DNA of 20,309 bases from Isohypsibius dastychi. Taxonomy: Eukaryota; Tardigrada; Eutardigrada; Parachela; Isohypsibiidae. Positions 4,119-20,309 of this stretch are shown here, piece after piece (the first letter of the stretch is position 1; each line of letters starts with the position of its first letter). The stretch covers positions 1 to 20,309 of the forward strand of contig JAQIWT010000439.1 in NCBI GenBank assembly GCA_034696485.1, read 5' to 3'. Position numbers and translations under genes: made by a program. The notes beneath the pieces were generated by a model. It was not told the origin of the DNA, did not search any database, and saw only the letters and a list, made by a program, of their open reading frames with translations.

Positions 4119-4454
4119 TCATGAATACCAGGAGCAGAAAAAGTAAGGTGCCCAACCAGAGTCTGGAGTTAATTTTGAGTCAACCTTGAACTGTTTGCAA
4201 AAGCGGAAGGCAATCAGTCTTTCCATCTTATCTGACAGACATTCAACGCGCTGTCTTACCGAATCAATAATGTGACCCGGAAAAGCCACACATTGCGCTG
4301 GATAAACAACCCAGTCCCAGTTGATTAAAAATCCAAGTGATTCCAGCAACTGAATAAAATATTCGTGAGCGTAACAGCATAATGAAACAGTTTTGACAAT
4401 CAGCAAAAGGTCGTCAAGATATTGCACGATCATTGAAACTCTTCTCCGCGTCAT
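4119..4454 (-). pseudogene. DIRS-like reverse transcriptase fragment
   Basis: The open stretch contains the RT active-site box YLDDLLLI (near 4410), followed by LESLGFLINW and a P-x-Q-x-V-A-F-x-G-x-I-I-D-S pattern, the palm and post-palm spacing seen in DIRS-order RTs. It covers only the palm/thumb part; the fingers upstream are lost, because the inverted repeat begins about 65 bases away. A stop at 4119-4121 separates it from the RNase H fragment in the same frame. Confidence 0.65.
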
Positions 4455-4518
4455 TCTATAAGAACGTTCAAAATTCGATCAAAATCAGCAGGTGCGCAGG
4501 TTAAAAAATCGGCTATCA

Positions 4519-4632
4519 CGATTTCTGCAAAAAAGTGCCACTTTTCAGGTTCAGCTGCTAAATACCAACAGAATTCTGAGCTCAACGTTCGGCTTGCGGC
4601 TGCCACTGATTAAGAATCAGAATTTTTTTCTC
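4519..4632 (-). repeat. Right arm of 114-bp inverted repeat flanking the YR retroelement
   Basis: Inverted partner of 2821-2934. It lies just beyond the RT fragment (about 65 bases), where RT fingers coding would be expected, and so marks the breakpoint of the rearrangement that truncated the RT. Confidence 0.85.
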
Positions 4633-5262
4633 TTTTCATGACTGATTCGCCTAAAGAGCACTTATATCAACTACGCTTGAGCATGATGGATATTATTTCT
4701 CAATTCAGCAAGTGTGATCAACTAACCGCCGTGAACGTATTACATCTGTCATTCCATTTTGCATCAGGACCAGTATTTGTTTTACATGAAAAACTAGTGA
4801 ATGCTAGTTTGGCTAAGAAGAATAAGCGACAAGGGGGAGTGACTAGGTAGCGATTTAACGCAATGTCACACTTGCACCCAACCATCTCAATAGCAATCTC
4901 AAGTTCTACATGGTTGAATTTTTTTTTGCCTTGCCTGATAAAGGCCTGTGCTGCTCTAGAACTGCAAAGTATTCGCACACGGGGAATTATCCAGAGATTA
5001 TTCTTCTCAAAACCAACTTAGATCAGAAAGCACGAAATCCCGGCGACTTGATTCCGCGGGAATAATCCTGACGTACCCCAAGTTCTCCCTCCCTCATTCG
5101 GTCGACTGAACCCTCTGATATGACAACAAAATCAATGACGTCACTCAATCAAATGCTTTGACCTAACTGGGAGATGGTCACGCATTTTAGAAACTGCATC
5201 TTCCTTAAATTTCTCATTTTTTTCTGCCCTTTCTAGTGACTATTGAAACTCGCTCTTTTCAG
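4633..5262. other. No recognised gene
   Basis: A 70-codon plus-strand open stretch at 4638-4850 begins with ATG after a pyrimidine-rich tract, and there is a shorter unlabelled open stretch near 4930-5065, but neither resembles a known domain and no splice structure joins them convincingly. They could be exons of the gene that owned the HTH fragment at 5263-5368. Confidence 0.3.
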
Positions 5263-5368
5263 ACATTTCAGTAGATTCAGTTCTGAGGTCCGTTTTTGAG
5301 GCTGAGACGCCAGTCAATACGGCGGCAGATATGTTCGGCATTCCACCTTCAACTCTGAGACGTCGTCT
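5263..5368 (+). pseudogene. Exon-like fragment with a pipsqueak/CENP-B-type helix-turn-helix
   Basis: Preceded by a strong acceptor (CTCTTTTCAG ending at 5262) and followed by a GTAGGT donor at 5369, this 106-nt block reads without stops. It encodes AADMFGIPPSTLRRRL, the classic psq-type HTH signature (A-A-x-x-F-G-I-P-x-S-T-L-R-R-R-L) used by chromosomal regulators and by pogo/Tigger-type transposases. No neighbouring exon was recognised, so it may be one exon of a broken gene or a transposase remnant. Splicing is predicted, not shown. Confidence 0.5.
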
Positions 5369-6240
5369 GTAGGTTTTCGGGATTGCCAGGTTCCAATAAT
5401 TTTATGGAATTTGCGATTGATGTTGTCATAAAGGAGCAGTCATGCACCGGAGACCCCGATTGAACGGGTACAAATAGCGCGGCTGTGGTACTGCACCATA
5501 TATCACACTCAATCAAATTTTCCTGCCCCGTTACATGCCTGTCTCAGTTCAAAAGTTTCTGAGTCATAATTTGCTCTCCTGGAATTCCTTACGTTTTTGA
5601 TCGATCTCCCACATCGCTGTTGTTCCCACTTCTGCTCGCGAAATGAAGATGTTTCTGTTGCTTTTGAGCCTCGCGTTCGTCAGCTAGAGCTTCTGTGTGG
5701 TAGAAAAAGATTGCGATGAAAGTTGTGTTTGCGATTCTGAAGAACCATACCGAATGGATTGCTCTTCTCACGGATATTCCATCTCGCCATATACTTCGAG
5801 CGGAATTTTCAGTAAGATCACTGTTCTAGACCTTTAGATGAACAGAATTTCATCCAACCCGACATATGACATCGAAGATGTTTTTCCAACCATGCAAATC
5901 TTGATATTGTTCGAAAGTACATTTCCATGCGAAATTCTGCCTTCGATCAAGTTTCAAGGGAGAATTCAGACTCATGAATGTATCGCATGTGAGCACTCAA
6001 ATGTCCAGCTTCAGAAATAATTTCATGATTAAGCGATAAAATGTTGTAGTGACATCGGAAGCTCCGATTTAAACAAAGGAGTGACGCGTTGAACCGGATA
6101 CTCCAGCAACAGGTTTGTTTTCGTGACTGTTTTGTTTCTGCGTTTGATTAACCATATGTTAGGGCTTAACAGTTTCTGTGGAGAAGATGACTACAGCGTT
6201 CTATCCAACAACGACTTCCCAACCGGAAAGAAGAGAACAT
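5369..6240. other. No recognised gene
   Basis: AT-rich sequence with only short open stretches on either strand (for example 5838-6020 plus, 5589-5771 minus), none with a recognisable motif. No tRNA-like fold or repeat array was noticed. Confidence 0.4.
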
Positions 6241-6304
6241 GGTAGTCTGGCAGAACATTAGAGGGGGTATGGCCATACCCCCTCTAATGTTCTGCCAGAC
6301 CACC
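6241..6304. repeat. 64-bp near-perfect palindrome (foldback/cruciform)
   Basis: The inner 56 bases (6245-6300) are a perfect palindrome with no spacer, centred on GGCC at 6271-6274; three more pairs extend it to 6241-6304 with one mismatch at 6244/6301. Either strand can form a 32-bp hairpin. Possible origins are a foldback element, two head-to-head transposon termini, or an inverted duplication. Confidence 0.95.
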
Positions 6305-6754
6305 TATAGGTAGGCCCGCCCTCGATTGATACAGGGACGCCGATTCCGCCATTTTGTTTTGCCTCCCTTCCCCTATCCCTCTTCCGCCACCTTCAAATAT
6401 TTTGTTCTTATCTCCTACCCCTTCCCCTGTCCCCTTTCTCTCGCAATTCGTAACCCCCGGTGCATGTAAACCCCCGACGCCATTTTGCTTTTGAGGACGC
6501 CGAGTTCCGCCATTTTGTTTTCTGCAAGTTCTTGCTGAAGCCTCGTGGTCTAAACCTCTTAGATCGCAGAACCCCCGACATACAACGATCTTTGTGTGGG
6601 TAAGAAAGTGGGCGGGGCCAAGTTTTGTGACGTCATTTTACTAAAATAGGCGTGGCCATTTCTCTGCTTTTCATTGCCTGAATAATCTCGACGCAATACT
6701 TCTTGGGTGAGTGTCAACCAAAAACGACGTGTCGACTTTGTACTGCAAGAAGGC
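6305..6754. repeat. Non-coding stretch with dispersed GACGCC...GCCATTTTG repeats
   Basis: A GACGCCGATTCCGCCATTTTG unit near 6333-6356 recurs with one extra base near 6499-6521 and in shortened form near 6476-6490. A C-rich AACCCCCG motif appears near 6451, 6469 and 6571, and pyrimidine-rich tracts fill 6360-6440. A GGGCGGGGCC block and a TGACGTCA palindrome lie near 6612-6635. No coding region. This is probably interspersed repeat DNA and may include the unrecognised left end of the Maverick. Confidence 0.6.
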
Positions 6755-7027
6755 TTAATCGAAACATTTTTTTATCACGCTGTTAGTACCTGCAACTGGT
6801 ATAGTGTTCATCGAACCACATTTTGCACATCGGCGTATTTTGTACAGAAATATTTCAATCTTTTCGTTAAGGCGGTTTTCAGAGAATCTGCCAGACAAAA
6901 AATATCTGTCAAACTTGCGCAGCGGCTCGCAGTCGAGCTCACTTGCCATGAATGAATGTAAACAGACAGGTTCACATTTCAAAGCTTTACTCACTTTTTC
7001 TAAGTTTAAGAGGAGAGTCTTGTTCAT
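6755..7027 (-). CDS. eIF2-beta C-terminal-domain-like protein (eIF5/eIF2B family)
   Basis: A 90-residue protein that lines up along its whole length with the C-terminal domain of translation factor eIF2-beta: TLLLNLEKVSKAL (residues 4-16), a P-x2-L-x2-F-x3-E-L pattern at 20-31, GRF at 46-48, an amphipathic helix at 49-64, then CAKCGSMNTI starting a zinc ribbon (Cys67, Cys70). The third ligand, Cys88, is present, but the stop codon falls exactly where the fourth Cys (residue 91) is expected. In the cell eIF2-beta helps deliver initiator tRNA and binds eIF5 and eIF2B. A short version carried by a virus-like element could be decoy or substitute; that role is inference. The start chosen (7027) lies one base after the stop of the upstream ORF (TGA-G-ATG). 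An upstream in-frame ATG at 7057 would overlap that ORF by 29 bases and add residues with no family match. Confidence 0.75.
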   Translation of the reverse strand: MNKTLLLNLEKVSKALKCEPVCLHSFMASELDCEPLRKFDRYFLSGRFSENRLNEKIEIFLYKIRRCAKCGSMNTIPVAGTNSVIKKCFD

Positions 7028-7028
7028 C

Positions 7029-7235
7029 TCATAGCGGCATAATAATTGCGGAATCATTTCGCAGCAGAGTCTTGATTAAAGAGTCCAACGGTAGAGTCCG
7101 CTCAGATACAGTACAATTTTTTTGTAGGATTTTAAATTGAAGTATTGTCTCTGTGATAAAAAATACCACGCTTGTCAAAACAAGAATGATCCAGGTTACT
7201 AAGGAGATTGTTTTCTGTACGGTTTGTTTATCCAT
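7029..7235 (-). CDS. Small single-pass membrane protein, unknown
   Basis: A 68-residue protein with one strongly hydrophobic segment at residues 11-33, preceded by a short polar N-terminus and followed by a polar, mildly basic tail. It overlaps the protease stop by 8 bases and is followed after one base by the eIF2-beta-like start, so it belongs to the compact gene string. Function is not recognised. A one-helix protein beside virion genes could act in membrane association or egress, but nothing in the sequence shows this. Confidence 0.6.
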   Translation of the reverse strand: MDKQTVQKTISLVTWIILVLTSVVFFITETILQFKILQKNCTVSERTLPLDSLIKTLLRNDSAIIMPL

Positions 7236-7731
7236 ACTTTTTAAGCTGCTGAATCAAAAATTCTCGATCGTGGGTCGTTGTTCTTAAACGGAAATATTTA
7301 TTTATAAACTTGCAAACTAGCTTGTCATTCAAAACTTTGTTACCGCTTAATGCAGTCATGATCTCTTCATAAGTCACGCCGTGTGATCGCAGAAGAACAA
7401 AAAACATACAGTATTGACCACAAACCGTGGAGTCATCGGACTGCAATCTTTGGCACTGGACTCGGTTGTTTTCTGGTTCTAACCACTCTCTGATAAATGG
7501 TGAGTACTCGGCTGGGTTCTTGCCAAACGAGTCAAAGCTTTCGACTTTGTCTCCTGAACAAAAGAACGCCACCCAATGTTGTCCCGGTTCAGATGACTGG
7601 CTGGTGTTACAAATGTAAGCTCCAGGATATTCCTTGGTTTCTGGGAGGGTGTCCGCGGCAAAGACGCCAACAAAGACTTCATCGGCAATTCGATCTGTTC
7701 TCAAAGCTTTTTCGATCTGAAAGTTGTCCAT
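7228..7731 (-). CDS. Adenain-type cysteine protease (PRO), virion maturation protease
   Basis: A 167-residue C5/C48-fold cysteine protease. Predicted catalytic residues in adenain order are His52 (QHWVAFF), Asp67 (ESFDSFG), Gln97 (RLQS, oxyanion) and Cys104 (VCGQYC). Length is in the usual range for Maverick PRO. In Mavericks and adenovirus-like lineages this enzyme is thought to process capsid and core precursors during assembly. Its ATG overlaps the major-capsid stop as TAATG, and its own end overlaps the next ORF by 8 bases, so it is probably translated from the same transcript. All key residues are present, so it is likely active. Confidence 0.92.
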   Translation of the reverse strand: MDNFQIEKALRTDRIADEVFVGVFAADTLPETKEYPGAYICNTSQSSEPGQHWVAFFCSGDKVESFDSFGKNPAEYSPFIREWLEPENNRVQCQRLQSDDSTVCGQYCMFFVLLRSHGVTYEEIMTALSGNKVLNDKLVCKFINKYFRLRTTTHDREFLIQQLKKYG

Positions 7732-9092
7732 TATGGTGCAAAATCGAACACCGCCTGTCTGGCGTTGTTTATTGAAATCGTGGCGTCAAATACTAGATAA
7801 GCTACAACCACAATGGGTTTCGTGAGAGCTGTTGAAAACTTCATGTTGATGTTCAAATTTCCCTGCTTTATGAGCGTTAACGCACCCCGCGCTGTTCCAC
7901 TTGGCGTGAAGTCGAAGCCAAACATTGTAAAGCCTTTGTTGTACTCATACCGGTTGAATGGGAGTTCCCGATCGCCTCCGTTGAAGATTTCCAAAGACCG
8001 AAGTAGGCCTTCATATCCTCGTAGTGAGTAGTTGTTATCAAAATCAAACTGGTATCCACCAGACGGATAAATCTTACCATCAACTTCTGCACTCAGTGAT
8101 GCAAGGCTGAAATGTCCAAGTTCGAAAGGGTTCGAATCATGAGTTCCTGACAGCGCGTTTGATGCCACCATAGAAATTATCATGAACTTTGGAAGCTGCC
8201 CGCTGACCAGATTTGACCACTCTGCGAATGTCTGACCAGTATTGATTGTCATCTGTCTCATCTGAACTCTCTCAAAATGGTACAATGCCGGTGCGCTGAG
8301 TAACTTCTTTGCTAGAGCATTCATGTAAGTTGGCGATGGTTCAAATTTCCGAACAAATAGTTTTGGATTCCGGATCACGACTTTGGGTAGCTTATCAGCA
8401 GAAAGTGCCGTGTAAGCCATTGCTGCTCTCGAGCGTACGAATTTCAAAGACAACGCAACACCGGGGAGAAGCGGTTTGTCTTGCTGAAAGATATCACAGT
8501 GAATTTTTCCAGTTAGTTGAACCACTTTACTGCCTTTGATCATAGCTTGACGATCGATCTGATCTTGATTGTTAAATTTGCAATACGCATCTGCCCCTCC
8601 CACGACAGCAGGTACGACAGAACCTTGAACCAGAGTGTTATCGTAGCTCGAATCCAGAATGAAGCCCTCGCATGATAACTGACTGCGTTGGCTACTATAG
8701 GTATACCGGAGGAGATTTTCGAGATACGCTCTATAAAAATAAAGGTTGGAAGTGTCACTGATAGAACGACCACCGAGTTCGACAACAACGTTTTGGAAGA
8801 GAGAGCTCAACATGTTGTTGCACGGACAGACGCAGTCCTCGACTGTAATGTTTGTTCCATCACTCTTGTAAACGTACAGATCGCACTGAAACCGAATATC
8901 AGCTAGAGAAATAAGGTCTCCCGATGGTTGAATGTCGAATGTTATGTCGTTAGCCTCATCAAATGTTGCAGCACTTGGTCCGATGAGAGTGTCATGGGTT
9001 GCTACACGTTCTGTTAGTGTGGGTGGAACGTAGAAGAGCTGACTCTCCGTGAGCAGCGAAGGTTCTGAACCGGCGGTAATAAAGGTGCTCAT
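7731..9092 (-). CDS. Major capsid protein, double jelly-roll (MCP)
   Basis: A 453-residue protein in the standard Maverick position between the small basic protein and PRO. Early text such as ATHDTLIGPS, FDIQPSGD and LADIRFQCDLYVY, followed by ELGGRSISD and YRAYLENLL, fits the first jelly roll of nematode Maverick capsids. A later PSGGYQFDFDN and RGYEGLLRSLEIFNGG region fits the second. The protein would form pseudo-hexameric capsomers. It is on the short side for Maverick MCPs, yet open from end to end. Its ATG overlaps the preceding stop as ATGA (9089-9092). Confidence 0.88.
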   Translation of the reverse strand: MSTFITAGSEPSLLTESQLFYVPPTLTERVATHDTLIGPSAATFDEANDITFDIQPSGDLISLADIRFQCDLYVYKSDGTNITVEDCVCPCNNMLSSLFQNVVVELGGRSISDTSNLYFYRAYLENLLRYTYSSQRSQLSCEGFILDSSYDNTLVQGSVVPAVVGGADAYCKFNNQDQIDRQAMIKGSKVVQLTGKIHCDIFQQDKPLLPGVALSLKFVRSRAAMAYTALSADKLPKVVIRNPKLFVRKFEPSPTYMNALAKKLLSAPALYHFERVQMRQMTINTGQTFAEWSNLVSGQLPKFMIISMVASNALSGTHDSNPFELGHFSLASLSAEVDGKIYPSGGYQFDFDNNYSLRGYEGLLRSLEIFNGGDRELPFNRYEYNKGFTMFGFDFTPSGTARGALTLIKQGNLNINMKFSTALTKPIVVVAYLVFDATISINNARQAVFDFAP

Positions 9093-9457
9093 TTTATAGT
9101 TGATCCCTTAAGCGCTGGCAGTCGAATTCTACGAATTATTTTTGGTTTTATTGCTTTTCGTTTTCGGCCTTGACCTGTCTGAGTTCTTAATTTTGACGTG
9201 ACGTGCTGGACTGCTGAATCTATTGCTGAATCGACTGCTTTAGCTGTAGCGGATTTTACGTGTGGTTGAGCTTTAGCTATGAGGTTCGAAACAGTTGGGG
9301 CTGCCCTGCTATATAGACCTTTGGCAAAGCTCATTACTCTCCCCCAGAAACTCCCGCCGAGCATGGGACTCCCACGGTATCTTGGCATTCCATAGCCGGT
9401 CTGCTGGGAGAATGCAGCGGTGAAGAGTTCTTCGTTTTCAATATACGGAATTATCAT
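9089..9457 (-). CDS. Small basic virion/core protein (adenovirus pX/pVI-like, Maverick PX type)
   Basis: A 122-residue protein with a Gly/Arg-rich MPRYRGSPMLGGSFWGR segment (24-40), an amphipathic stretch FAKGLYSRAAPTVSNLIAKA (44-63), an Ala-rich helix (about 66-90) and a very basic tail (98-112). This layout matches small Maverick proteins compared with adenovirus core or membrane-lytic proteins. It sits between minor and major capsid genes with ATGA overlaps on both sides. It is a possible PRO substrate; no cleavage site was identified with certainty. Confidence 0.7.
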   Translation of the reverse strand: MIIPYIENEELFTAAFSQQTGYGMPRYRGSPMLGGSFWGRVMSFAKGLYSRAAPTVSNLIAKAQPHVKSATAKAVDSAIDSAVQHVTSKLRTQTGQGRKRKAIKPKIIRRIRLPALKGSTIK

Positions 9458-10200
9458 CGTTTTTTTGGTCGAAAATGTAATTTGACAAGAGAAAGGCCTT
9501 TGGAAAATTTGATTTCTTGTCCGAGATCGTTGAATATCTCGATGCTTATTTGGCTAAATCGACTCGATGCAACTGGAATGTAATGTGGGTTTTCAAATCT
9601 GAGGAAGATCGGCTTGTTCTCACCCGGAACGATTGGTATAGTACGCAAACATGGAGCTAGCGAATCACCCACGTGACTGAATTCTATAATATCGCAGTAA
9701 ACATAGATAAAGTACAATGTACCAGACCCACCAAATATCCGTGGTGCAACAAAATCCATCGACTTTTTTTCTCCCCCATTATATTCACCCGTTTTGAAAC
9801 CCATAAGGTTCGCGAGATCTTTGTTAGTTTGATCAAAAATGACCGTGCAGTTCTTGGAGACTGTCAACTGTATCTTTCGATCACGAACAGTGAATACAAA
9901 AGCAGGTTCACCCAAGCTGTTCAGTGGTGGTTCAGTGTCCTCTAGATCAGATATATTTGAGATATTAGCAGCCTCGATTGGATAGAAATTGACGACCGAT
10001 ATTCCTTTTTCTTTCCAGATTAGCGGCTGTGTAAAGTTGAGTGATTTTTTTGGAACTGGAATGACACATTCTGACAATCCAACTTCGTATTCCGTTTCAA
10101 GAACAACCTCGCGTGCCAGGTTAGTGATGTATGAGCCTATTCTGTTTGACGGAAACATATCGCGGGATGCATCGCATGGTAATGTCACGTAGAAGCTCAT
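9454..10200 (-). CDS. Minor capsid (penton-like) protein, single jelly-roll
   Basis: A 248-residue protein starting MSFYVTLPCDAS. The pattern FYVTLP...FPSN-R-I-x2-Y-x-T-x-L-A-R and EYEVGLSECVIP is the hallmark N-terminus of Maverick penton-type proteins, which form capsid vertices. The start at 10200 is chosen because it overlaps the integrase stop exactly as ATGA (10197-10200). A longer frame up to 10254 exists but reads inside the chromodomain coding sequence and adds no conserved residues. The stop overlaps the next ATG in the same way. Confidence 0.88.
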   Translation of the reverse strand: MSFYVTLPCDASRDMFPSNRIGSYITNLAREVVLETEYEVGLSECVIPVPKKSLNFTQPLIWKEKGISVVNFYPIEAANISNISDLEDTEPPLNSLGEPAFVFTVRDRKIQLTVSKNCTVIFDQTNKDLANLMGFKTGEYNGGEKKSMDFVAPRIFGGSGTLYFIYVYCDIIEFSHVGDSLAPCLRTIPIVPGENKPIFLRFENPHYIPVASSRFSQISIEIFNDLGQEIKFSKGLSLVKLHFRPKKR

Positions 10201-11269
10201 GACAAGTCGGTGTGTTTCTCCCAAGAGTCGAATGAGGATGGATAACCAGCCCACCTTACCAGGTATTCTTTTTGACCTTTGTGTGTTCGTTCACGTAAGA
10301 TTTTTGATATCTTGAAATGTTTAGGATTCTGCTGAACAATGACTTTTGATAACTCCTTGGCATAAAACCAACCGTCGACGTCATCGTTTGCTAAATCGGT
10401 TACTCTGTACTGGTGCAGCGCATGCGACTGACGCACCTCGACAATGCGGTAGATCTGTTCTGAATAGTTCGTCTCATATCCCTTCTCAAAAGCTAATTTC
10501 TCCTTTGATATCCGGACCGTGTCGCCAACATTGAACTGCGGCTTTTCCGGTTCTATTTCGGGGGCAGCCAATTTTTGAAGAATTTTAACAGCTTCTTTTT
10601 GTCCCACATTTATTGGAGCATAACCGGTAGTGGAATGTTCAGATTCGTTGTAGGATTTGAGGACGTAAGTACCTCAATATACCTGAAATTATTTTGTTCT
10701 GTCATGTAGACCCATAATCTCTCTTTTATTGTGCGATTGAGACGCTCAACATTGACTGCCTTGTCCTTGTTGCGGGATGTCCACTGCTGTACACCGACTT
10801 CTTTGAGAAAATCTCGAACATTTTTGGCCACAAATTCTTTTCCATTATCACTAAAAACCTTTAGAGGGAGCCCATATTCTTTGAAAACTTCAGCCAGTGC
10901 TGGGAGGATCGCTTTAGTCTCTTTCGTTTTGAGCGGGATGGCGAATCCATATTTTGAAAAACAGTCAACAACAGTAAGAATAAATCTGTAACCATCATTA
11001 AATTCGCTGAATTTCTGCATGTCTATGAGATCCATATGGTACACATCATTTATATCAACAGCTATAACTCTTCGTTTTCGGAATTTGCTCACGACAGGCC
11101 GGTGTTGCGTGTAAGCGTGTTGAGTCTGCAAGAATTCCACAACTTGTTCCCTTTTCAGACCCGGAATCTGGAGTTTCGCTACTTTGTAGAGTCTGTCTAT
11201 CCCACCAAGAGAACTCGGTTTGGACGGCGACAGATATAGTTTTTCTAGTTTCTCGCTCAGGTTCTCCAT
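10197..11269 (-). CDS. Maverick DDE integrase with C-terminal chromodomain, frameshifted near 10650
   Basis: Retroviral-type integrase that inserts the element DNA. The first frame (10610-11269, 219 codons) has an N-terminal segment with QTQHAYTQHRPV, then the catalytic triad Asp80 (MDLIDM), Asp141 (FSDNGKEF) and Glu175 (VERLNRT). Just after RYIEVL, frame continuity is lost: the expected SYNES...GYAPINVG segment is in the -1 frame, which runs on to 10197 and holds an SH3-like region and a chromodomain (YLVRWAGYPSSFDSWE). The interval is one or four bases shorter than family spacing would need. No canonical slippery heptamer is visible, so this looks like an indel or sequence error rather than programmed frameshifting. 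The start ATG at 11269 follows a 48-base gap. Confidence 0.9.
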
Positions 11270-11317: not shown

Positions 11318-11785
11318 TCAGTGAGAAAATATCCATCCACGACCTTGCTGTTTACTTCCCTGAATCGACTTTTGTCTTGATGTACTAGGAACGATGTTGG
11401 ATTGATCGATATGTGACGGAAGCCTTGCCTCTTTTGTTGGCTTAATAGATTTTTTCCGTGAAGGTTGTTTCTTTTTTCGTGATTCACTTGTTGGTGATGA
11501 TGTCGGCTCTGCTAGTACTGGAACAACTTCAGGTGCTGTAATAATGGGCTGCGCTACTGGTTCAGCCATCGTTCGTTGTGGGGAAGCTATCTTTGTTGGA
11601 TTCGTTTTCGACTTGTTCAGAAATACGTTGAGTGCTGTGGTGAGTGCCTGAGCGCGTTGAAACTCATCCTCATACCGTTTATTCACCACTTTTTCCGTTT
11701 CTGTATCAAATGTTCTTTCCTTATCGGTTTCAGCTGACCCTTTTCTATCGTATGTCGAGACTGGAACTAGATAGTACGTGTTCAT
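11318..11785 (-). CDS. Conserved-type Maverick small protein, Pro/Lys-rich tail
   Basis: A 155-residue protein beginning MNTYYLVPVSTYD, the kind of YYLVP start seen in an uncharacterised protein family of Mavericks (PY/PW group; exact letter not certain). The rest is low complexity: a charged helix (about 20-60), a Pro/Ala/Val stretch (70-105) and a basic Lys/Ser tail with RKKKQPSRKKS. It looks largely disordered and could bind nucleic acid. Its ATG overlaps the upstream stop as ATGA (11782-11785). Confidence 0.6.
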   Translation of the reverse strand: MNTYYLVPVSTYDRKGSAETDKERTFDTETEKVVNKRYEDEFQRAQALTTALNVFLNKSKTNPTKIASPQRTMAEPVAQPIITAPEVVPVLAEPTSSPTSESRKKKQPSRKKSIKPTKEARLPSHIDQSNIVPSTSRQKSIQGSKQQGRGWIFSH

Positions 11786-12108
11786 TTTATAAACGATAAT
11801 GCAAGGGATGCAAGAACCGGAAGTATTGCGCCGATAAAACCCCCTCTCTGTCGTATGACTTTCCTCTTGTCAGTGTGTTTAACACTCTTACTCGCAATGA
11901 TATGGATTGGTCTTTTGTATTTTGATATGATTTTTTCCTGTTCATCAGTCATTGATTCACGATTGGTGGCTAAATTGAAACAAGCGACCTCAAAAATTTT
12001 CATTTGGGTTTTATTCAGTGTGTCCAAGAACGCGTTCAGTTGTCTTGGAGTCATTGTTTTGAGTGCTGTTACCATGTCGGCAACATTTTCTGGGCTTACT
12101 CCTCTCAT
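11782..12108 (-). CDS. Small Maverick protein with C-terminal hydrophobic helix
   Basis: A 108-residue protein with a helical N-terminal part (residues 5-65), a basic stretch ending KRKVIRQRGG and a hydrophobic tail FIGAILPVLASLALSFI (91-107). The basic-GG-hydrophobic ending recurs in a small uncharacterised Maverick protein found next to the ATPase, so it is probably element-conserved. It may insert in a membrane or in the capsid shell. It is joined by ATGA overlaps to the ATPase upstream and to the YYLVP protein downstream. Confidence 0.6.
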   Translation of the reverse strand: MRGVSPENVADMVTALKTMTPRQLNAFLDTLNKTQMKIFEVACFNLATNRESMTDEQEKIISKYKRPIHIIASKSVKHTDKRKVIRQRGGFIGAILPVLASLALSFIK

Positions 12109-12731
12109 GCTTTTGCGTAGACTTTACGTAAATCACCAAAGAGATCGGTCTGTAAGCGTATTGTTTCAGGGGTTCTGGGTTGTAAATTCACGATCAAATA
12201 TCCGTACGGTTGCTTAATAGCCTCCAGATATGCTTTCTCCAATTCCTTAATTCCCGTTTGATTGCTCAAAACTTTTATTTGCTGCACATCACGGGGTGAT
12301 TTGAACAGAATAATAACTTGACAATTCAGAGCAATATCGCGCATGATTTCACCCTGTTTGAACAAGTTTTGAACCAGGAAGAACACACTGACGTTTTTGT
12401 GATGCATATCACGTGTAAACAGTGTTGCCATCTCTTTCTTGTCTGCTATTTCGGACATAAGATCGTCGAGAACAAGCAAATTATTGACGTTTTTGTCAAA
12501 TTCAATCTCTGAGAGGCCGTCCAAACCTTTCACAAACTCAACCGCTGGCATTTCATCAAACAGCGGCTGCCATGATCCATAGGCGTAAACCATGCGATCA
12601 GGAACGGGGTTGAAGATTTGTACATTTCTCAACAATTGCGAAACAAAAAATGATTTACCACTCATGGTTGGTCCGGAAATCATACAACCGAAAGGACATG
12701 CAAAACGTAGGTCAGTTTTTATTTTTATCAT
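12105..12731 (-). CDS. FtsK/HerA-type genome-packaging ATPase (A32-like)
   Basis: A 208-residue P-loop ATPase. Walker A GPTMSGKS is at residues 20-27, Walker B NLLVLDDL at about 84-91, and the following VFFLVQNLFKQG segment (near 115-127) matches the sensor strand of A32-like packaging ATPases. It should translocate the element DNA into capsids. Length is typical for Maverick ATPases. The start at 12731 lies inside the 3' end of the TBP-like gene (20-base overlap), and the stop overlaps the next ATG as ATGA. Confidence 0.9.
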   Translation of the reverse strand: MIKIKTDLRFACPFGCMISGPTMSGKSFFVSQLLRNVQIFNPVPDRMVYAYGSWQPLFDEMPAVEFVKGLDGLSEIEFDKNVNNLLVLDDLMSEIADKKEMATLFTRDMHHKNVSVFFLVQNLFKQGEIMRDIALNCQVIILFKSPRDVQQIKVLSNQTGIKELEKAYLEAIKQPYGYLIVNLQPRTPETIRLQTDLFGDLRKVYAKA

Positions 12732-13410
12732 TGTAAAGTAGTATTTGCAGCTCTATTACAGCGTTGTAGATGTCCTCTGTGCTTTTAGCTCCCAATATGA
12801 CGCAAGTGCCAGTATGAAAGATATTGCACGTAATTTTCAAATGTTGGATTCGAAATCGCACTGCTGGAAACAACTCTGGTTCGAATTCTAGCGCTTTCTG
12901 CTTTGCTAAATCGTAGAGCTGAATTTTCTCGTGATGTCGATAAACAGCAACGATGTTTTGAATTTTATAATCTGTGTATTCACTCATCACCCCTAAATGA
13001 ATCAGCTGTTGCACGTACTGCTCGAAGACTGTTTTTGCCTCGTCGTCGCTCTTACCTCCGATAACGATGAGTCTCCCATTCTTGAAAACCTGGCAGACAG
13101 TGCTCGAATCGTTTTTGAGATTTGAAGAACCGAATGCTCCATTCTTGCGGCATTTACTTATCGCTGAGTATTTTCTTTCCAAAGTAACCAAATCAAAAGC
13201 AGAAGTAGCGCATGCGGTGACAACAAAATTACAAATTTCCATCGTACGCTTTTGTGGTTTTACGTTCAAGTAACCTTCAACTAGGATACCTGAATGGAAA
13301 ACCATAGAAGCAGAACGTTTGGTAGCTGCTCCTCGATTGCCTGAAAATTCTTCACGACACAATGTATAGTTTATTTTATCTAAGTATTTATTCAGAGATG
13401 AGTTCTTCAT
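12712..13410 (-). CDS. TATA-binding protein (TBP) homologue carried by the Maverick
   Basis: A 232-residue protein with the two-repeat saddle of TBP. Repeat 2 (about 149-226) is clear: YKIQNIVAV, then EFEPELFPAVRFRI, CNIFHTGTCVILGAKS and EDIYNAV match the DNA-binding strands and the G-A-K-x signature, with both DNA-intercalating Phe positions kept (Phe181, Phe198). Repeat 1 (about 57-141) is more diverged but has ICNFVVTA, a DL-x-x-L helix and VFKNGRLIVIGGKS. The N-terminal 55 residues have no match. TBP nucleates transcription at TATA promoters, so the protein probably drives the element's own TATA boxes at 13956 and 19513 or interferes with the host; both are inference. It overlaps ORF164 by 23 bases and the ATPase by 20, so it is embedded in the unit, not a host gene nearby. 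Confidence 0.86.
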   Translation of the reverse strand: MKNSSLNKYLDKINYTLCREEFSGNRGAATKRSASMVFHSGILVEGYLNVKPQKRTMEICNFVVTACATSAFDLVTLERKYSAISKCRKNGAFGSSNLKNDSSTVCQVFKNGRLIVIGGKSDDEAKTVFEQYVQQLIHLGVMSEYTDYKIQNIVAVYRHHEKIQLYDLAKQKALEFEPELFPAVRFRIQHLKITCNIFHTGTCVILGAKSTEDIYNAVIELQILLYNDKNKN

Positions 13411-13882
13411 AAATACACTGCTGTTTTGCGGGTTGATGAATGTCTACATACTCAATCCCGATCTTCGAACACAAGTCTCTAAAACGTCGGTAGGGAATTC
13501 CGATGAATCTGCAGTCTTGTTTGAAAGTTATAGACCGACCGAACATTGGATGGAACCCAATCAAGACAAATGTTTTTGGTGTTGTTTCATTGAGATAAAA
13601 CTTGATTTTTTCGGTCTTTCCAAGACAGTTAGCGAACAGCTGATCAAGTGAACCGTCCTCACAGATCATCTTCAGCAACTGAATTTCTTCAGATTGAAGT
13701 AGAAGACCTGTCTTTAACGCTTCTTTGAAACCTTCTGGAGTTGGGGCACAACCAAAACCAAACAAAACATTGGTGTTCTCCGGGCCATTATTTGTCCATG
13801 CACTTAGAATCTTGGTGACTGCATAACAAGTCCGATTTCCATCGGTATACCCTTTCATATAATCAGGATCGTTGCGATACAT
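13388..13882 (-). CDS. Orphan protein ORF164, first gene of the virion unit
   Basis: A 164-residue protein I do not recognise. It starts MYRNDPDYMKGYTDGNR and has a central segment with EIQLLKMICEDGSLDQLF, a beta-like stretch KTFVLIGFHPMF (about 110-121) and a C-terminal part with IPYRRFRDLCSKIGIEYVDI. It has no signal peptide or membrane segment and six scattered Cys without a zinc-ribbon spacing. It is the first ORF after the TATA box at 13956-13964, with a short AUG-free leader, and overlaps the TBP-like gene by 23 bases. By position it could be a partner of the TBP-like protein; that is only a guess. Confidence 0.75.
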   Translation of the reverse strand: MYRNDPDYMKGYTDGNRTCYAVTKILSAWTNNGPENTNVLFGFGCAPTPEGFKEALKTGLLLQSEEIQLLKMICEDGSLDQLFANCLGKTEKIKFYLNETTPKTFVLIGFHPMFGRSITFKQDCRFIGIPYRRFRDLCSKIGIEYVDIHQPAKQQCIYEELISE

Positions 13883-14420
13883 TGTGCAAGTTGTGAAATT
13901 TTTCGTGAAATTCGACTGAATTGTTCGTTGTGAGGAAGATCCTAGAAAATGTTTACTTATATACCATGTTTCTGGTGTTTTCTGATTGGTTGTGATCTTA
14001 AAGATGGGCGGAACAGAAACTTTCGCGTTCGAACATGATTCTTTTTTCGGAAAACAGGAATACCAATTGTCAGAAACGGAGCTTAAATCTAAAAATACAT
14101 GCTATGCAAATACAACGAAAATACAAAAACGACTCCTACAGTTCTTAACACCGGGTGCAAAATAAGAGACACAATCCAAAAAGGGGAGTTATTAATTCCG
14201 GAATGGAAGCCTAAAACATAAAAACACATGTTATATGAATGTGAGTCAGAATCAAGAAAAGAACAATATTACTCCCAAAAACTGACGTTATTGTGATGTA
14301 AGCAACAGTCTAACACTGCAGTACCCAACTCTCGCCGCGTGGAGGCCATCACATGAGAGTCAAAAAATTTGCCTTCGAGAAGGACTTTTACAACACAAGG
14401 GACAAAACAAGTTGTAGCAC
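13883..14420. other. 538-nt intergenic region between polymerase and virion unit
   Basis: No coding region. It should hold the 3' end of the polymerase transcript and the promoter of the second unit. No AATAAA was found on the minus strand here, so the polymerase poly(A) site is not obvious. Confidence 0.5.
13956..13964 (-). promoter_or_regulatory. TATA box of the ORF164-to-eIF2-beta-like unit
   Basis: On the minus strand GTATATAAG lies about 75 bases upstream of the ORF164 ATG. A start site 25-30 bases downstream (about 13930) would give a leader of some 45-50 bases without any AUG. This is the only clear TATA box in the 538-nt gap. Confidence 0.6.
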
Positions 14421-17400: not shown

Positions 17401-19091
17401 TCCCTCATTTTAGGACGTTTAAAAGGAGGCGATCTTGAAATGACTGAATTACCGTGTCCCTGAGAAACCACTACGACTTGGAACTCAGCGAAAGCTCGTC
17501 TCTGCAAAACATCGATATCTTCTAGTCTCAGCATTTTTCCCACTTCAAACCCATGCTCTTCAAGAAGATGAGATGCTGCTGCCTCAAGGTGACCTGCCCC
17601 TCCCCTCTTGTCTAAATACAGCTTCCATGCATTATAATCTATACCACCAACTTTGGTGTCGTGTGTATGACGGAACTTACCAAGAAAAAGAGCGGCTGGC
17701 AAACACAAGTTTTTCTTAACATGCAAAAGTGAAACAAGGGAAGAAGATGTTCTCATTCTGTCGATAGAGCAATGAAGATTTTTGATTTTTCTTGGGGCGC
17801 CTCCTTTTATCGAAACAACTTTAGTGATGATTATTTTGAAAGAATCGTCGATCTTGAACTTTTTTGAAGAATTCAGCAGATTCATTTTTGCCATCAATAG
17901 ATCAACGCTAAAATCCTTAAACTGACGGACATGCAAATAAATGTTCGGACTCAGGTCTTTACAAGCTAGTTCGATCATGATGTAGTCATCGTCCTCGAAA
18001 GTTTCTGTACAAAGCCTGAAAATGGCCTCGAAAACCTTCGGCAAAAGTCTCATTGATGTTATGTTGTCGAATAGATCTGGGAGGGGAGCGATTTTAACTT
18101 TATGAACGTGGCGATAAATGCCATATTTTTTGCTGGTTTTCATAGTGACAGGTTCTAGCTCGAATAAATCGTCAAAATTTATCGGCGGCAAATCGGGCAC
18201 ATTTGCACCTCCTACTTGTCGTACGGGAGACTCGTAGACAGGACTAAAACTCAAACGCCTAGGAGTAATCAGTTTTTCGGCTTTTGGTCTAGTTCTTGCA
18301 GAAATTTCTGTAAAAAGGCAAATGGGTTTTTCTGTCGGAAACACAAAAGGATTTTCTGACACTGTTGCTGGATCATCGTGATAGATTTCGAAACTACATG
18401 GAGGTTGTGGTTGAATATTCAGTAAAGACAGTCTTTGACGAGCAGAAGTCAAACGAACTCCATTCACTCGATTTGCTAGCCCTGCTTTTTCAACATGAAC
18501 TGGAGGAAAAACATAAACCTCGGCGTAGTCAATCGGAGAAGGCTGTATTACTTGATTGAAATCAGGCGAAATAGGAGAAACAGGAGTGACAACAGGCGCC
18601 AGATTAAGCTGAGGTGAATGGGGACTTTGAGGTGAACCAAGGAAAATATCATGACAAGGAGAGGGAAAAACAGTTGCAGATCCAGAGTGATATCCACTAT
18701 CTTTAATGCCAATGAAAAAATTAGGAACTGGAGAAACGTGCAAATCAGGAAAATGAGGTAAGTTATCGTATGCGGGCAAATTGTTAACATGAAAAACAGA
18801 ACCAACTGGTGACCCCTGAACCAAAGAAACTTCATCAGAATCGAGAGCCTCAAAACCATTTGCCTGGATTGCCAACATCTGATCTTCTTCAACTGACTGG
18901 TACATCGCTGAGGTCAAACGACTAATTTCTTCACGAGCTCTCTCTCTACCATACAATTCCAACATGTAAACTAACTCAGGGTATGGAGGATTAACTTCGG
19001 TCGACCCGAAATGCAACTGATGCATGCTAATGAATTCTTTACGGTACCACATGACCAAATAGTAATCGGACAACCTAAAATTAGACTCCAT
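14421..19091 (-). CDS. Protein-primed family B DNA polymerase (pPolB) of the Maverick
   Basis: A 1556-residue replicative polymerase. From the N-terminus: a Ser/Pro-rich, probably disordered region (about 60-310), a region with LCLPAALFLGKF near 460 comparable to the cysteine box of the OTU-like part reported in related polymerases, and a Cys/His zinc-binding cluster (about 585-700). The 3'-5' exonuclease follows: Exo I FFDFETW near 715, Exo II AHNFRAYDGHF near 778 and Exo III YCSLDVTVL near 910. The palm has motif A DMVSLYPF near 1129, motif B KLMLNSFWGKFG near 1310, motif C YYDTDSV near 1405 and GPKSYSYEV after it. All catalytic residues are intact. The start is ATG at 19089-19091, the first AUG after the predicted spliced leader; six more codons upstream are open but lead back to an in-frame TGA without ATG. 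It uses a protein primer by family knowledge. Confidence 0.95.
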   Translation of the reverse strand: MESNFRLSDYYLVMWYRKEFISMHQLHFGSTEVNPPYPELVYMLELYGRERAREEISRLTSAMYQSVEEDQMLAIQANGFEALDSDEVSLVQGSPVGSVFHVNNLPAYDNLPHFPDLHVSPVPNFFIGIKDSGYHSGSATVFPSPCHDIFLGSPQSPHSPQLNLAPVVTPVSPISPDFNQVIQPSPIDYAEVYVFPPVHVEKAGLANRVNGVRLTSARQRLSLLNIQPQPPCSFEIYHDDPATVSENPFVFPTEKPICLFTEISARTRPKAEKLITPRRLSFSPVYESPVRQVGGANVPDLPPINFDDLFELEPVTMKTSKKYGIYRHVHKVKIAPLPDLFDNITSMRLLPKVFEAIFRLCTETFEDDDYIMIELACKDLSPNIYLHVRQFKDFSVDLLMAKMNLLNSSKKFKIDDSFKIIITKVVSIKGGAPRKIKNLHCSIDRMRTSSSLVSLLHVKKNLCLPAALFLGKFRHTHDTKVGGIDYNAWKLYLDKRGGAGHLEAAASHLLEEHGFEVGKMLRLEDIDVLQRRAFAEFQVVVVSQGHGNSVISRSPPFKRPKMREIILYYSDKHFDLLRSIKGFLGRSYYCDKCETAFSNKNQHNCLGVCSLCGRYNEDCELTEPTFCSKCCRTFRNKKCFEMHRLGNGAFCTCDNVFVCKFCKKFVNMSRRRGADKKHVCGEIFCKTCTEFVDQASHKCYMKVMKPEPIKEPNYLFFDFETWNHPELGHVPNMVICQRSDGTEIRFPADGEPMTEDIGPVFGKWLFTEENRGVTIIAHNFRAYDGHFILKYMLDNNLKPQVIKRGTQLLELRYGPLNINARDTLNFCPLKLSNFPKTVGLSHLISKGEFPHLANIPDNWDKIIPFPEPRDYMIESRSRADREVFLKWHAQEREKCRDEFDVHDQLASYCSLDVTVLRLCALKFRADFIKLCNIDPFKSVTIAAACQKYFKTYLLKPNEIAVISDHGYQANRKTSIEATEWLEWRNLEFEGRIRHGRNSKEVAVGKYFVDGFDKETNTVFEYNGAIWHGCPCCQNQEDRVPFSNMTMLEAYEYAETKVAFLENSGFIVEVMWSCQWQAMKREPDIVEFISSMDLQKPIVAKDAFKGGRTNASKLFHEVREGEKIHHIDMVSLYPFANKHEIYPVGHPDIIVSNFKDISCYFGIVRCIVETPDSDMFPPLPLTINGKLSFVLCMKCAEACNQDPCTHSTPQRYLHGTWCTPELHYAVDQGYKIVSTQEVWLWNERRPRFFAEFVDKFLKIKTEASGWPAHCVTEQSKDEYLAEVERKEGIVLDRDSMVSNPGLKAVAKLMLNSFWGKFGMRDNLTSTQFFHQPKDFYQLLRSKVRNVHDIHIVTEQCVMVTSSTEEDFNEGNSSSNLAIAAFTTSYARLRLLVMLKKLGGDRILYYDTDSVIYVSREGDWEPQLGSVLGEWDNQLEPGESHISSFVSLGPKSYSYEVFPTGRIEMKLKSITQNGYTENILESDGDKGFEQTGRALDKPALEELLRDKTKTLKVTYPNFIKKDPKYQKIFNIPQAKTLRLVYDKRVLLDDFTTLPFGTK

Positions 19092-19168
19092 TGTAATGGA
19101 GTAATACAACCTTGAACTCTGAGGAGGATCAAGAAGGATGGAACGAGATCACTGTAGCTCGACCGTTG

Positions 19169-19231
19169 CTAAAGGAAAGACAAACAACGTTTCACACCGA
19201 ACAAACCGCAATAAGAGATGAAAAGACTCAC
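19169..19231 (-). other. Predicted leader intron 2 of the polymerase gene (63 nt)
   Basis: Donor GTGAGT at 19231-19226 and acceptor TTTCCTTTAG ending at 19169. The donor G is the third base of an ATG (19233-19231), so splicing removes that AUG. The acceptor could instead serve as a trans-splice (SL) site for the polymerase mRNA, 77 bases before its ATG. Confidence 0.55.
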
Positions 19232-19326
19232 ATGATTTCTCGGAAAAGCGGGACGGAACGCGATCGTAGGAGTTCAATCCAAATGGATAACCTTGTAGAA
19301 GTTCACGGTAAGTTGACAAGTAATCA

Positions 19327-19389
19327 CTGTAAAAAGAAAAGATGTAAGCACACAGAACATCCAAGAAACAGAAACTAGGTGAAACTTAC
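19327..19389 (-). other. Predicted leader intron 1 of the polymerase gene (63 nt)
   Basis: Donor GTAAGTTT at 19389 downward and acceptor CTTTTTACAG ending at 19327, both near the nematode consensus. The donor again splits an ATG (19391-19389), and the intron contains one more AUG at 19360-19358. Confidence 0.6.
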
Positions 19390-19512
19390 ATGCTGTTCGT
19401 AACAGACTGTGAGACGCTGGAGCAGATTGGGCAAGTTCGAGCACAAGTTTCGGAAGTTTGATTCAAGAATCAAATGAAAACCGAAGAGGGCTTTTTACAG
19501 TGTGCTCATCCA

Positions 19513-19519
19513 TTATATA
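19513..19519 (-). promoter_or_regulatory. TATA box of the polymerase gene
   Basis: TATATAA on the minus strand about 420 bases upstream of the polymerase ATG. Start sites around 19487 would give a two-intron leader. Two ATGs overlap or follow the box closely but lie upstream of the expected start site. Confidence 0.5.
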
Positions 19520-19520
19520 G

Positions 19521-19992
19521 TCCAGTGATAAAACACACCTCTAAAAATTCAGCAAATAGAGATTCCAAGTTTCAGAATCTTCCAATAGCGTTAGGCCGCC
19601 CACATTCTGTCTGCCAGTCTGATCTTGAGTGACAGGAGCAATTAGACCCAGTGGTCATCGGAGCCCGCTCATGCATGCAAGCAGGTGATGAAACTTTTGA
19701 AAAATGATTAAAAACTCGAAATATATCGAAAGGTCGTGATATTTCAAAATGCATCTTTCACAAAACCAGCACATCCATAAAAAACATGGAAATCCACAGG
19801 TGCTCAAAATCAGTTTGAAAGAGTCATAAATCTCGAAACACGGCGGCTAGAATTCGTCGAAACTTTGATAATTTGATGTGAACCAAATTCTATTTTGTTG
19901 GAAAAACCAAACATTTCATCGGGAACACGGGAAAAAACTGAGCCATAATCTGTCAACAGTATACCCGTACAATTTCAAAAAACAACTGTCAG
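19521..19992. other. No recognised gene; probably the right end of the Maverick and/or flank
   Basis: AT-rich, only short open stretches. If the element ends here, its terminal inverted repeat should lie in this stretch, but no arm matching the left side (6300-6755) was found by eye. Confidence 0.4.
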
Positions 19993-20154
19993 TTGGAGCA
20001 GGTGGTGTGCGAGAAGGACGCCAACTTCTCCTTCCTCGCGTGTCCCGCTGCGAAGCTGTCAATCAAACTCTCCGATCTCGTTACGTTACAGCTTCACGTT
20101 GCGCGCATGAATGGTTCATTTTTTCAGTCTCACGGCAAAAAACTCATTCCGGAC
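19993..20154 (+). pseudogene. Exon-like fragment resembling the SURP region of SF3A1/PRP21
   Basis: A 54-codon open block, with GC-richer codons than its surroundings, lies between an acceptor (ACTGTCAG ending at 19992) and a GTATGT donor at 20155. It encodes NFSFLACP, then LSDLVTLQLHVARMNGSFFQS, which resembles the segment of splicing factor SF3A1/PRP21 leading into a SURP domain (D-L-x-x-L-T-x-x-F-V-A-R-N-G-x-x-F). The match is moderate and the exon is alone in the window; it could be part of a host gene to the right, or a duplicated fragment. Confidence 0.4.
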
Positions 20155-20300
20155 GTATGTTTTTTTGTATTTTAATAATGGAATTAGGTTTCTGCGAGCG
20201 AATCACTAGTAAAGCTGACGTCATTGCTTGTCGTGTCACTCGAGTGCTCATTCGGAATGTCCACTTCTTGGCTAAACAACACTAATCATCTGCATGATGA

Positions 20301-20309
20301 GGGGGGGGG
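20301..20309. repeat. Run of nine G at the window end
   Basis: The final nine bases are all G. This may be a contig edge or the beginning of a longer G tract. Confidence 0.9.

What the first reader, a model, noticed from the sequence alone, without database searches (positions are those of the whole stretch)
12712..13410. A TATA-binding protein homologue built into a Maverick/Polinton
The sequence shows both TBP repeats, repeat 2 being close to canonical (EPELFP...GAKS...EIY-type endings) with the intercalating Phe pair. The gene overlaps its neighbours on both sides by 20-23 bases, so it belongs to the element and is not host sequence. TBP-like proteins are known in some large DNA viruses; I know of none in Mavericks. 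A private TBP would let the element choose its own promoters independently of, or in competition with, the host factor.
Basis: partly seen in the sequence, partly recalled or inferred. Interest (0 to 1): 0.88.

Follow-up and report, generated by a model that had tools for sequence, protein, structure and literature searches.

The report
A virus-like transposon's own TBP
A virus-like mobile element (Maverick/Polinton) in a eukaryotic genome carries its own version of TBP, the protein that picks where genes are switched on; the version belongs to a separate old-looking lineage with changed DNA-reading residues, so the element may choose its own promoters.

The parts
12712..13410 (-). TBP homologue, 232 aa
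12715..13242 (-). TBP core from Met57; most aligned metagenome relatives start here
   Evidence: alignment A1; pLDDT 90 or more
13388..13882 (-). ORF164, unknown function, directly upstream of TBP, overlap 23 bases; matched before TBP in 5 of the 9 other loci with the order TBP-ATPase
   Evidence: single-sequence model failed (pLDDT 36)
13957..13963 (-). TATATAA (followed by G), starting 81 nt before the ORF164 ATG: candidate host-type promoter of the ORF164-TBP unit
12105..12731 (-). A32-like packaging ATPase, overlaps TBP by 20 bases
   Evidence: Pox_A32 0.0021 here, under the cut-off; 4.4e-6, over the cut-off, in relative L021
14421..19109 (-). family B DNA polymerase of the organellar/viral type
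   Evidence: PF03175 E=2.3e-46
11782..12108 (-). ORF108, conserved element gene
   Evidence: tblastn in relatives
11318..11785 (-). ORF155, conserved element gene
   Evidence: tblastn in relatives
10610..11269 (-). retroviral-type integrase
   Evidence: PF00665 E=2.7e-13
10197..10607 (-). chromodomain part beside the integrase
   Evidence: PF00385 E=9.6e-10
9454..10254 (-). presumed penton / minor capsid protein
   Evidence: position and conservation only; no Pfam hit
9089..9457 (-). ORF122, conserved element gene
7731..9092 (-). presumed major capsid protein
   Evidence: position, size and conservation; no significant Pfam or PDB match
7228..7731 (-). adenain-like cysteine protease
   Evidence: S273R 3e-4; Peptidase_C5 0.0073 here, under the cut-off; 2.3e-5, over it, in L020
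6755..7057 (-). eIF2-beta/eIF5-like domain gene (100 aa; shorter than the 128-aa relative on C1273)
   Evidence: PF01873 E=2.4e-12; 1nee (IF2 beta) 4.5e-6; C1273

Best explanation
An element-encoded TBP. SHOWN: it is a TBP by sequence and predicted fold; it is part of the Maverick; relatives are element-associated in this genome; the family is separate from the cellular TBPs sampled and looks to be under purifying selection. INFERRED: (1) the ORF164-TBP unit is first transcribed by host TBP and Pol II from a canonical TATATAAG; (2) the protein then binds and bends DNA through its conserved aromatic wedges, but at a sequence other than the canonical TATA box, because minor-groove contact residues differ; (3) it recruits host TFIIB and Pol II through the retained C-terminal stirrup (E188); (4) in type 1, with most of the basic residues of the TFIIA/TAF/Brf-facing side gone, it depends less on those host partners; (5) the genes so driven are most likely the structural genes, none of which (0 of 32 starts tested) has a TATAWAW box within 130 nt. 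This would be an early-to-late relay that works like the TATT-box TBP mimic of beta- and gamma-herpesviruses, but with a true TBP.
For: Identity. Element gene: 18 of 18 non-host TBP loci fetched (of 19 non-host contigs besides the window; C274 was not fetched) have other Maverick genes in the stretch, the host TBP locus none. Of contigs with an MCP match, 12 of 30 with best identity 35% or more and 0 of 12 below also hold a TBP match (my count). Separate branch: 34 element-type rows (7 from known elements) against 17 cellular rows, 100/98; T1 with the host TBP rejected, p-AU 7.6e-7; all element-type rows with two animal TBPs rejected, p 0.002. Selection: C394/C101 TBPs are 79% identical in protein and 71% in DNA, dN 0.15; dS could not be computed (returned -1) in any of 5 pairs, as when saturated. 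Kept residues, yeast numbering (35 T1, 50 T2): F99 35/35 and 50/50; position 116 Phe 35/35, Tyr 49 and Phe 1 of 50; F190 35/35 and 48/50; F207 35/35 and 49/50; N69 30/35 (3 gaps) and 49/50; N159 34/35 and 50/50; E188 35/35 and 50/50. Changed: L114Q 35/35 and 46/50 (cellular L 70/72); V203T 35/35 and 41/50; L205N 34/35, L205V 49/50 (cellular L 70/72); T124I 28/35, T124N 50/50; T215L 34/35 and 46/50; I194R 32/35 in T1. Table 1 of PMC2265533 (part 1 of section 8 read) lists F116Y, T124N, I194R, V203T and L205V among yeast TBP changes that abolished DNA binding; the window protein has I194R and V203T of these. TATAWAW upstream: 0 of 32 structural starts, 8 of 15 other starts, 4.5% of 5000 random windows. 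Two more initiation-type genes, PC4 and eIF2-beta/eIF5-like, occur in these elements.
Against: No k-mer is enriched upstream of structural genes: best p 1e-3, while shifted control sets reach 5.5e-7. The listed yeast changes abolished DNA binding, so they could mean loss of binding, not new specificity. V203T also occurs in 6 of 72 cellular rows. Structural genes are tightly packed, so they could be one polycistronic unit; their upstream sequence is mostly coding, which alone can lower TATA counts. 3 of 5 X-TBP units of type 2, and the window's PolB, have no TATAWAW box. Two of the 15 other starts are doubtful (one is a DDE transposase gene). E186, the other TFIIB contact, is kept in only 20 of 35 T1 and 24 of 50 T2. 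The loss of basic residues is partial: K133 is Lys or Arg in 30 of 35 T1, and in T2 positions 133, 137, 138 and 145 are still basic in a third to a half of rows. With the archaeal-type virus TBP L028 in the tree, it falls on the T1 side, on a long branch. Roles of single residues other than those in PMC2265533 are recalled. On re-checking the basic residues and V203T I lowered this confidence from 0.50 to 0.47.
Confidence: 0.47

Rival explanations
1. A decoy: the element TBP competes for TFIIB or blocks host promoters, to damp host transcription or silencing, without driving element genes itself.
For: E188 is kept in 85 of 85 sequences while DNA-contact residues are altered; such a protein could titrate TFIIB.
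Against: The four wedge positions stay aromatic in 35/35 T1 and 48-50 of 50 T2, and N159 stays in 84 of 85, which a pure titrator would not need.
Confidence: 0.18
2. A canonical TBP substitute: it binds ordinary TATA boxes and simply raises TBP dose for the element's TATATAA promoters.
For: TATAWAW boxes stand before ORF164 in the window, before X in 2 of 5 type-2 elements, and before several accessory genes; the fold is intact; V203T also occurs in 6 of 72 cellular rows.
Against: Near-fixed changes at L114, T124, L205 and T215 besides V203; five of the states seen are listed as abolishing DNA binding in yeast TBP, two of them present in the window protein.
Confidence: 0.15
3. Not a transcription factor any more: a DNA-bending architectural protein used in replication, packaging or integration.
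For: It keeps the DNA-bending residues, is followed by the packaging ATPase gene in 9 of 18 other loci and converges on PolB in 3.
Against: The TFIIB-facing E188 is kept in 85 of 85 sequences, which a purely architectural protein would not need.
Confidence: 0.12
4. A host TBP gene or pseudogene that the element carried off recently, without function.
For: Host and element TBPs are homologous; many element copies are broken.
Against: Grouping T1 with the host TBP is rejected, p-AU 7.6e-7; protein identity exceeds DNA identity between C394 and C101.
Confidence: 0.02

Closest known systems
Cellular TBP (TFIID subunit, PF00352)
   Same: Two-repeat saddle, four DNA-wedge aromatics, central Asn pair, EPELFP stirrup.
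   Different: 25-31% identity in VIA's 37 TBP rows; minor-groove contacts changed, basic residues partly lost; separate branch, 100/98.
TBPs of giant viruses and mirusviruses
   Same: Virus-borne TBP folds: Heterosigma akashiwo virus, Terrestrivirus and others in BFVD; mirusviruses, 59% of genomes (PMC10132985, passages).
   Different: Matches named TBP or TFIID have 9-18% identity. Many large viruses have their own RNA polymerase (recalled); none was seen among the 21 window ORFs that I scanned. Not placed in my tree.
Herpesvirus TATT-box TBP mimics (EBV BcRF1, MHV68 ORF24, CMV UL87)
   Same: Virus TBP-like factor for late promoters with a TATT box and host Pol II (PMC4893493, passages); a UL87-domain model is a weak Foldseek match, 4.9e-4.
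   Different: Around 10% identity to TBP (same paper) and five partner proteins; the Maverick protein is a clear TBP by sequence. No late box found here.
TBP genes in IMG/VR contigs L028, L035, L036
   Same: Virus contigs with their own TBP-like gene.
   Different: L028 has a phage-type terminase and portal; no Maverick gene matched in L035/L036, which I did not classify further.
TBP-related factors TRF1, TLF/TRF2, TRF3
   Same: Second TBP with changed promoter choice (recalled).
   Different: Host genes; TLF lacks some wedge Phe (recalled), here all kept. Not compared in a call.

Membership tests
TBP family (PF00352) | Profile match over the curated cut-off in both repeats | tested here: met
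   96.4 bits against 22.9, two stretches; in the genome scan repeat 2 has 71.4 bits and repeat 1 30.5 bits
TBP family (PF00352) | Two-repeat saddle fold | tested here: met
TBP family (PF00352) | Four DNA-intercalating Phe and central Asn pair | tested here: met
   All present in the window protein
TBP family (PF00352) | Binds and bends TATA DNA, nucleates a pre-initiation complex | not testable with these tools
   No binding data; contact residues altered
Maverick/Polinton | Protein-primed type family B DNA polymerase | tested here: met
   PF03175 (organellar and viral DNA polymerase type B) 2.3e-46
Maverick/Polinton | Retroviral-type integrase | tested here: met
   PF00665 2.7e-13; chromodomain 9.6e-10
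Maverick/Polinton | A32-type ATPase and adenain-like protease | tested here: met
   Under Pfam's cut-offs in the window itself (0.0021, 0.0073), over them in homologues L021 and L020; protease to S273R 3e-4
Maverick/Polinton | Double jelly-roll major and single jelly-roll minor capsid proteins | tested here: inconclusive
   No significant Pfam or PDB match; assigned by place, size and conservation; not folded
Maverick/Polinton | Long terminal inverted repeats and 6-bp target duplication | tested here: inconclusive
   Best exact inverted match between 3001-7400 and 18801-20309 is 12 nt; a 23-nt pair at 83% flanks the genes (5121-5143 and 20216-20238), which may be chance; the contig ends at 20309. 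Target duplication not tested
Herpesvirus-type late TBP mimic | Altered TATA-like box upstream of late genes | tested here: inconclusive
   No enriched k-mer upstream of 32 structural-gene starts; TATAWAW absent from them
Herpesvirus-type late TBP mimic | Partner late factors (BFRF2, BGLF3, BVLF1 and others) | not tested
   No such search made

The most novel reading that the evidence does not exclude
One branch of Mavericks in eukaryotic (probably animal) genomes carries its own small gene-expression kit: an old element lineage of TBP with changed DNA specificity that picks the element's late promoters with host TFIIB and Pol II, joined in some elements by a PC4 cofactor and in several by an eIF2-beta/eIF5-like factor that could favour its tightly overlapping reading frames. 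(Probability lowered from 0.35 to 0.33 on re-checking the partner-facing residues.)
Probability: 0.33. Interest if true: 0.9.

Novelty: new variant of a known kind. Interest (0 to 1): 0.75.

Why it matters
Mavericks are small virus-like elements generally thought to borrow host transcription (recalled). A conserved private TBP would mean that an element whose genes span about 12 kb of this window controls promoter choice itself. It could explain how such elements separate early from late expression, would give a natural example of a TBP with altered DNA specificity, and would add another viral solution beside herpesvirus TATT factors and giant-virus TBPs. It is directly testable with one purified protein. 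No TBP in a Maverick was seen in what the paper searches returned: 3 of 3 papers listed, two of them searched for passages; 0 papers; 30 of 219 listed; 12 of 1,328 listed. The library lacks most subscription papers, and two nematode Maverick papers looked up by DOI were not held.

Tried and rejected
Recent host capture of TBP: rejected by tree tests. Late-promoter motif by k-mer enrichment over 32 upstream stretches: nothing. Homology of ORF164 with gene X, which precedes TBP in type-2 elements: not shown (hhalign probability 0.2%). Structure of ORF164 from a single sequence: failed, pLDDT 36. Relatives of ORF164 in the protein database: none at E 0.001. IMG/VR relatives by the TBP alone, an MCP alignment or PolB: none; TBP alignments gave L028, L035 and L036, none with Maverick genes by what I saw. 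GTDB contigs by the TBP alignment: none. Long terminal inverted repeats: none found, one 23-nt pair at 83% noted. Element-borne TFIIB: the two PF00382 matches, C503 and C870, are on contigs without TBP or MCP matches. Altered-specificity papers by terms: none held; that V203T, L205V and I194F make the yeast TGTAAA-reading mutant of Strubin and Struhl is recalled (their 1992 title was seen only in a reference list). Host identity: SL1 0 matches, PF01484 0 matches without a positive control; the TBP on C792 scores highest among PDB chains with human TBP (323 bits), then Chaetomium-type and yeast (310) and Arabidopsis (299) (organism of chains partly recalled), so probably an animal or close kin.

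Rows dropped: from the residue counts, database proteins P0001-P0042 under 155 aa and P0044-P0093 under 160 aa; the tree was thinned to 52 rows, then HALOVIR (L028), which had fallen on the T1 side on a branch of 3.15, was left out of the tests. Labels T1, T2, T3 and cellular are mine; of five rows called archaeal only P0125 bears such a name. The window's penton start was skipped because the position tested was no start codon; one of the 32 stretches there is only 62 nt long. L018 and L024 were left out of the MCP alignment because one translation had a stop. Alignment A2 had a cut L018 row and was replaced by A3.

Full report

THE ELEMENT. The same strand carries a family B DNA polymerase (PF03175, 2.3e-46), a retroviral-type integrase and chromodomain, an A32-like ATPase and an adenain-like protease. 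The last two are under Pfam's cut-offs in the window, but their homologues in sister elements pass them, and the protease matches S273R at 3e-4. Capsid genes are assigned by place, size and conservation only. No long terminal inverted repeat was found between the stretches tested; a 23-nt pair at 83% flanks the genes. The window is a whole contig of 20309 bases. TBP overlaps ORF164 by 23 and the ATPase by 20 bases.

SAME GENE IN SISTER ELEMENTS. A search of the window's own assembly (30.4 Mb, 1648 contigs) gave 25 matches to the protein and 28 to PF00352. Besides the window these lie on 19 non-host contigs and on C792. I fetched 19 stretches of 6-10 kb (C274, a weak match, was not fetched). 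C792 holds what I take for the host TBP: canonical, 121 and 115 bits, no match to the window's element genes in the stretch. The other 18 of 18 have at least one more Maverick gene in the stretch; in two the link is thin (L013, ORF108 at 5e-5; L027, capsid and protease about 4 kb away). In 9 of 18 TBP is followed on the same strand by the ATPase, as in the window; in 5 of these ORF164 stands before it. In 4 TBP and ATPase are divergent; in 3 TBP converges on PolB; 2 are otherwise placed. Many copies are broken; C801, C157, C432, C131, C394 and C101 have TBP frames open from end to end. In the five type-2 elements looked at (L018-L021, L024) another small gene, X, overlaps the start of TBP. X is not recognisably related to ORF164. 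So a leading small gene plus TBP is a recurrent pair even where the pair has moved or turned. By my count, 12 of 30 contigs with a best MCP match of 35% identity or more, and 0 of 12 with a weaker one, also hold a TBP match: the gene marks a branch of Mavericks, and a more distant group in the same genome seems to lack it. Contigs are short and fragmentary, so these counts are rough.

A SEPARATE FAMILY. Database searches found 42 relatives of the window protein and one cellular-like protein, P0043, and with the type-2 profile 50 close proteins (P0044-P0093, E at most 2.7e-37) before a jump to 7e-31 and cellular TBPs (120 of 341 listed). In a tree of 51 rows, 34 element-type TBPs (7 of them from elements seen here) are one side of a branch against 12 eukaryotic and 5 archaeal TBPs (100/98); type 1 (96/94) and type 2 (98/96) are each one branch. 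Placing type 1 with the host TBP is rejected (p-AU 7.6e-7), and so is placing all with two animal TBPs (p 0.002). In an earlier tree with the virus TBP of L028 that row fell on the type-1 side, on a branch of 3.15. Long branches may exaggerate the distance to cellular TBPs; giant-virus and mirusvirus TBPs were not in the tree. Between the two closest open copies, C394 and C101, protein identity (79%) exceeds DNA identity (71%) and dN is 0.15; dS could not be computed for any of five pairs, as when saturated; dN of the other four is 0.40-0.57. This points to purifying selection.

WHAT THE RESIDUES SAY. In yeast numbering (35 type-1 and 50 type-2 sequences against 72 cellular), the wedge positions 99, 116, 190 and 207 are aromatic in 35/35 type 1 and in 50, 50, 48 and 50 of 50 type 2 (116 is Tyr in 49). 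N69 is kept in 30/35 (3 gaps) and 49/50, N159 in 34/35 and 50/50, E188 in 35/35 and 50/50; E186 in only 20/35 and 24/50. Near-fixed changes occur at contact positions: L114 to Gln, V203 to Thr, L205 to Asn (type 1) or Val (type 2), T124 to Ile or Asn, T215 to Leu, and in type 1 I194 to Arg. V203T is also seen in 6 of 72 cellular rows. Table 1 of PMC2265533 (part 1 of section 8 read) lists F116Y, T124N, I194R, V203T and L205V among yeast changes that abolished DNA binding; the window protein has two of them. I recall that V203T and L205V with I194F make the classic altered-specificity TBP; no held paper was found for that. On the TFIIA/TAF/Brf side (roles recalled) the window protein keeps K133 but not R107, R137, K138, R141 or K145; in type 1 K133 stays basic in 30 of 35 and K145 is Asp in 28; in type 2 the loss is only partial. 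The pattern, with wedge and one TFIIB contact kept and base-reading contacts changed, fits a promoter factor with another target sequence better than a canonical TBP; loss of DNA binding is not excluded.

PROMOTERS. TATAWAW occurs within 130 nt of 8 of 15 starts of ORF164, X, PolB and accessory genes, of 0 of 32 structural-gene starts, and in 4.5% of random windows. The two classes are my labels. In the window a TATATAAG starts 81 nt before ORF164. But three of five X-TBP units and the window's PolB lack such a box, two of the 15 starts are doubtful (one is a DDE transposase gene), and structural genes are so tightly packed that they may be one transcript. No k-mer is enriched before structural genes. 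The relay from host TBP to element TBP is therefore a hypothesis.

MORE INITIATION FACTORS. Unexpectedly, the window also holds, 170 bases after the protease, an eIF2-beta/eIF5-type domain gene (PF01873 2.4e-12; IF2-beta structure 1nee 4.5e-6). The assembly gave 8 such matches, on 7 contigs that all also have a match to a Maverick gene (MCP; protease for C1273). PC4 (PF02229) gave three matches in the assembly, all on contigs with type-2 capsid matches. These support the idea of elements that bring their own initiation factors, though each could do something else.

KNOWN KIND AND NOVELTY. Viral TBPs are known: giant viruses, mirusviruses (59% of genomes; PMC10132985, passages) and the TATT-binding mimics of herpesviruses (PMC4893493, passages). 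TATA-binding proteins are also mentioned among elements of putative mirusvirus origin in an alga (PMC10675990, passages). Searches combining TBP, TATA-binding or TFIID with Polinton, Maverick, adintovirus or virophage listed 3 of 3, 0, 30 of 219 and 12 of 1,328 papers; none of these is, by title and abstract start, about a TBP in a Maverick, but most were not opened. PMC4602308 (algal viruses of Yellowstone Lake, 'TATA-box binding' twice) and PMC7786948 were seen in the listing only. The main texts of PMC11071308 and PMC8097293 hold neither 'TATA' nor 'TBP'. The library is limited to open licences. I therefore rate it a new variant of a known kind.

Noticed in passing
window 6755-7057 (-); L032 1420-1806 (-); L030 1414-1857 (-); L033 1414-1860 (-); L031 1441-1827 (+): eIF2-beta/eIF5-like domain genes recurrent in Mavericks: after the protease, before PolB, or before the ATPase. 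The window's copy is shorter than the 128-aa one on C1273.
   Followed up: partly
L020 5402-6055 (+); L034 396-1394 (+); G000 C1246 1112-1255: PC4 (p15/Sub1) domain proteins; the three PC4 matches found in the assembly are all on contigs with type-2 Maverick capsid matches.
   Followed up: partly
L019 7257-7781, 8266-8832 and 8976-9557 (+): Three NADAR-domain genes close together beside one type-2 Maverick; two have a TATAWAW box 42-44 nt before the start.
   Followed up: no
L032 556-1350 (-): Fic-domain gene (PF02661 3.8e-13) next to the eIF-like gene; a protein with a similar HPF(S/A)NGNGR stretch lies in L031.
   Followed up: no
L028 7076-7672; L035 9977-10525; L036 9980-10537: TBP-like genes in three IMG/VR contigs; L028 also has a phage-type terminase and portal.
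   Followed up: partly
G000 C8, C220, C154, C450, C693, C1522, C265, C147, C276 and others: A more distant Maverick group (MCP 20-27% identity) in the same assembly, without TBP matches on the same contigs.
   Followed up: partly
L018-L021, L024: gene X before TBP: A 161-170 aa gene with a start like VVLDIDWF overlaps the start of TBP in 5 of 5 type-2 elements looked at; no Pfam match for the two scanned.
   Followed up: partly
window 1-1893 (-) and 3335-4454 (-): Broken ORFs that look like hAT transposase and reverse-transcriptase pieces (recalled resemblance; the ORFs of these stretches that I scanned gave no support).
   Followed up: no
window 6241-6304: A near-perfect palindrome of 32+32 bases (97% complementary, no spacer).
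   Followed up: no
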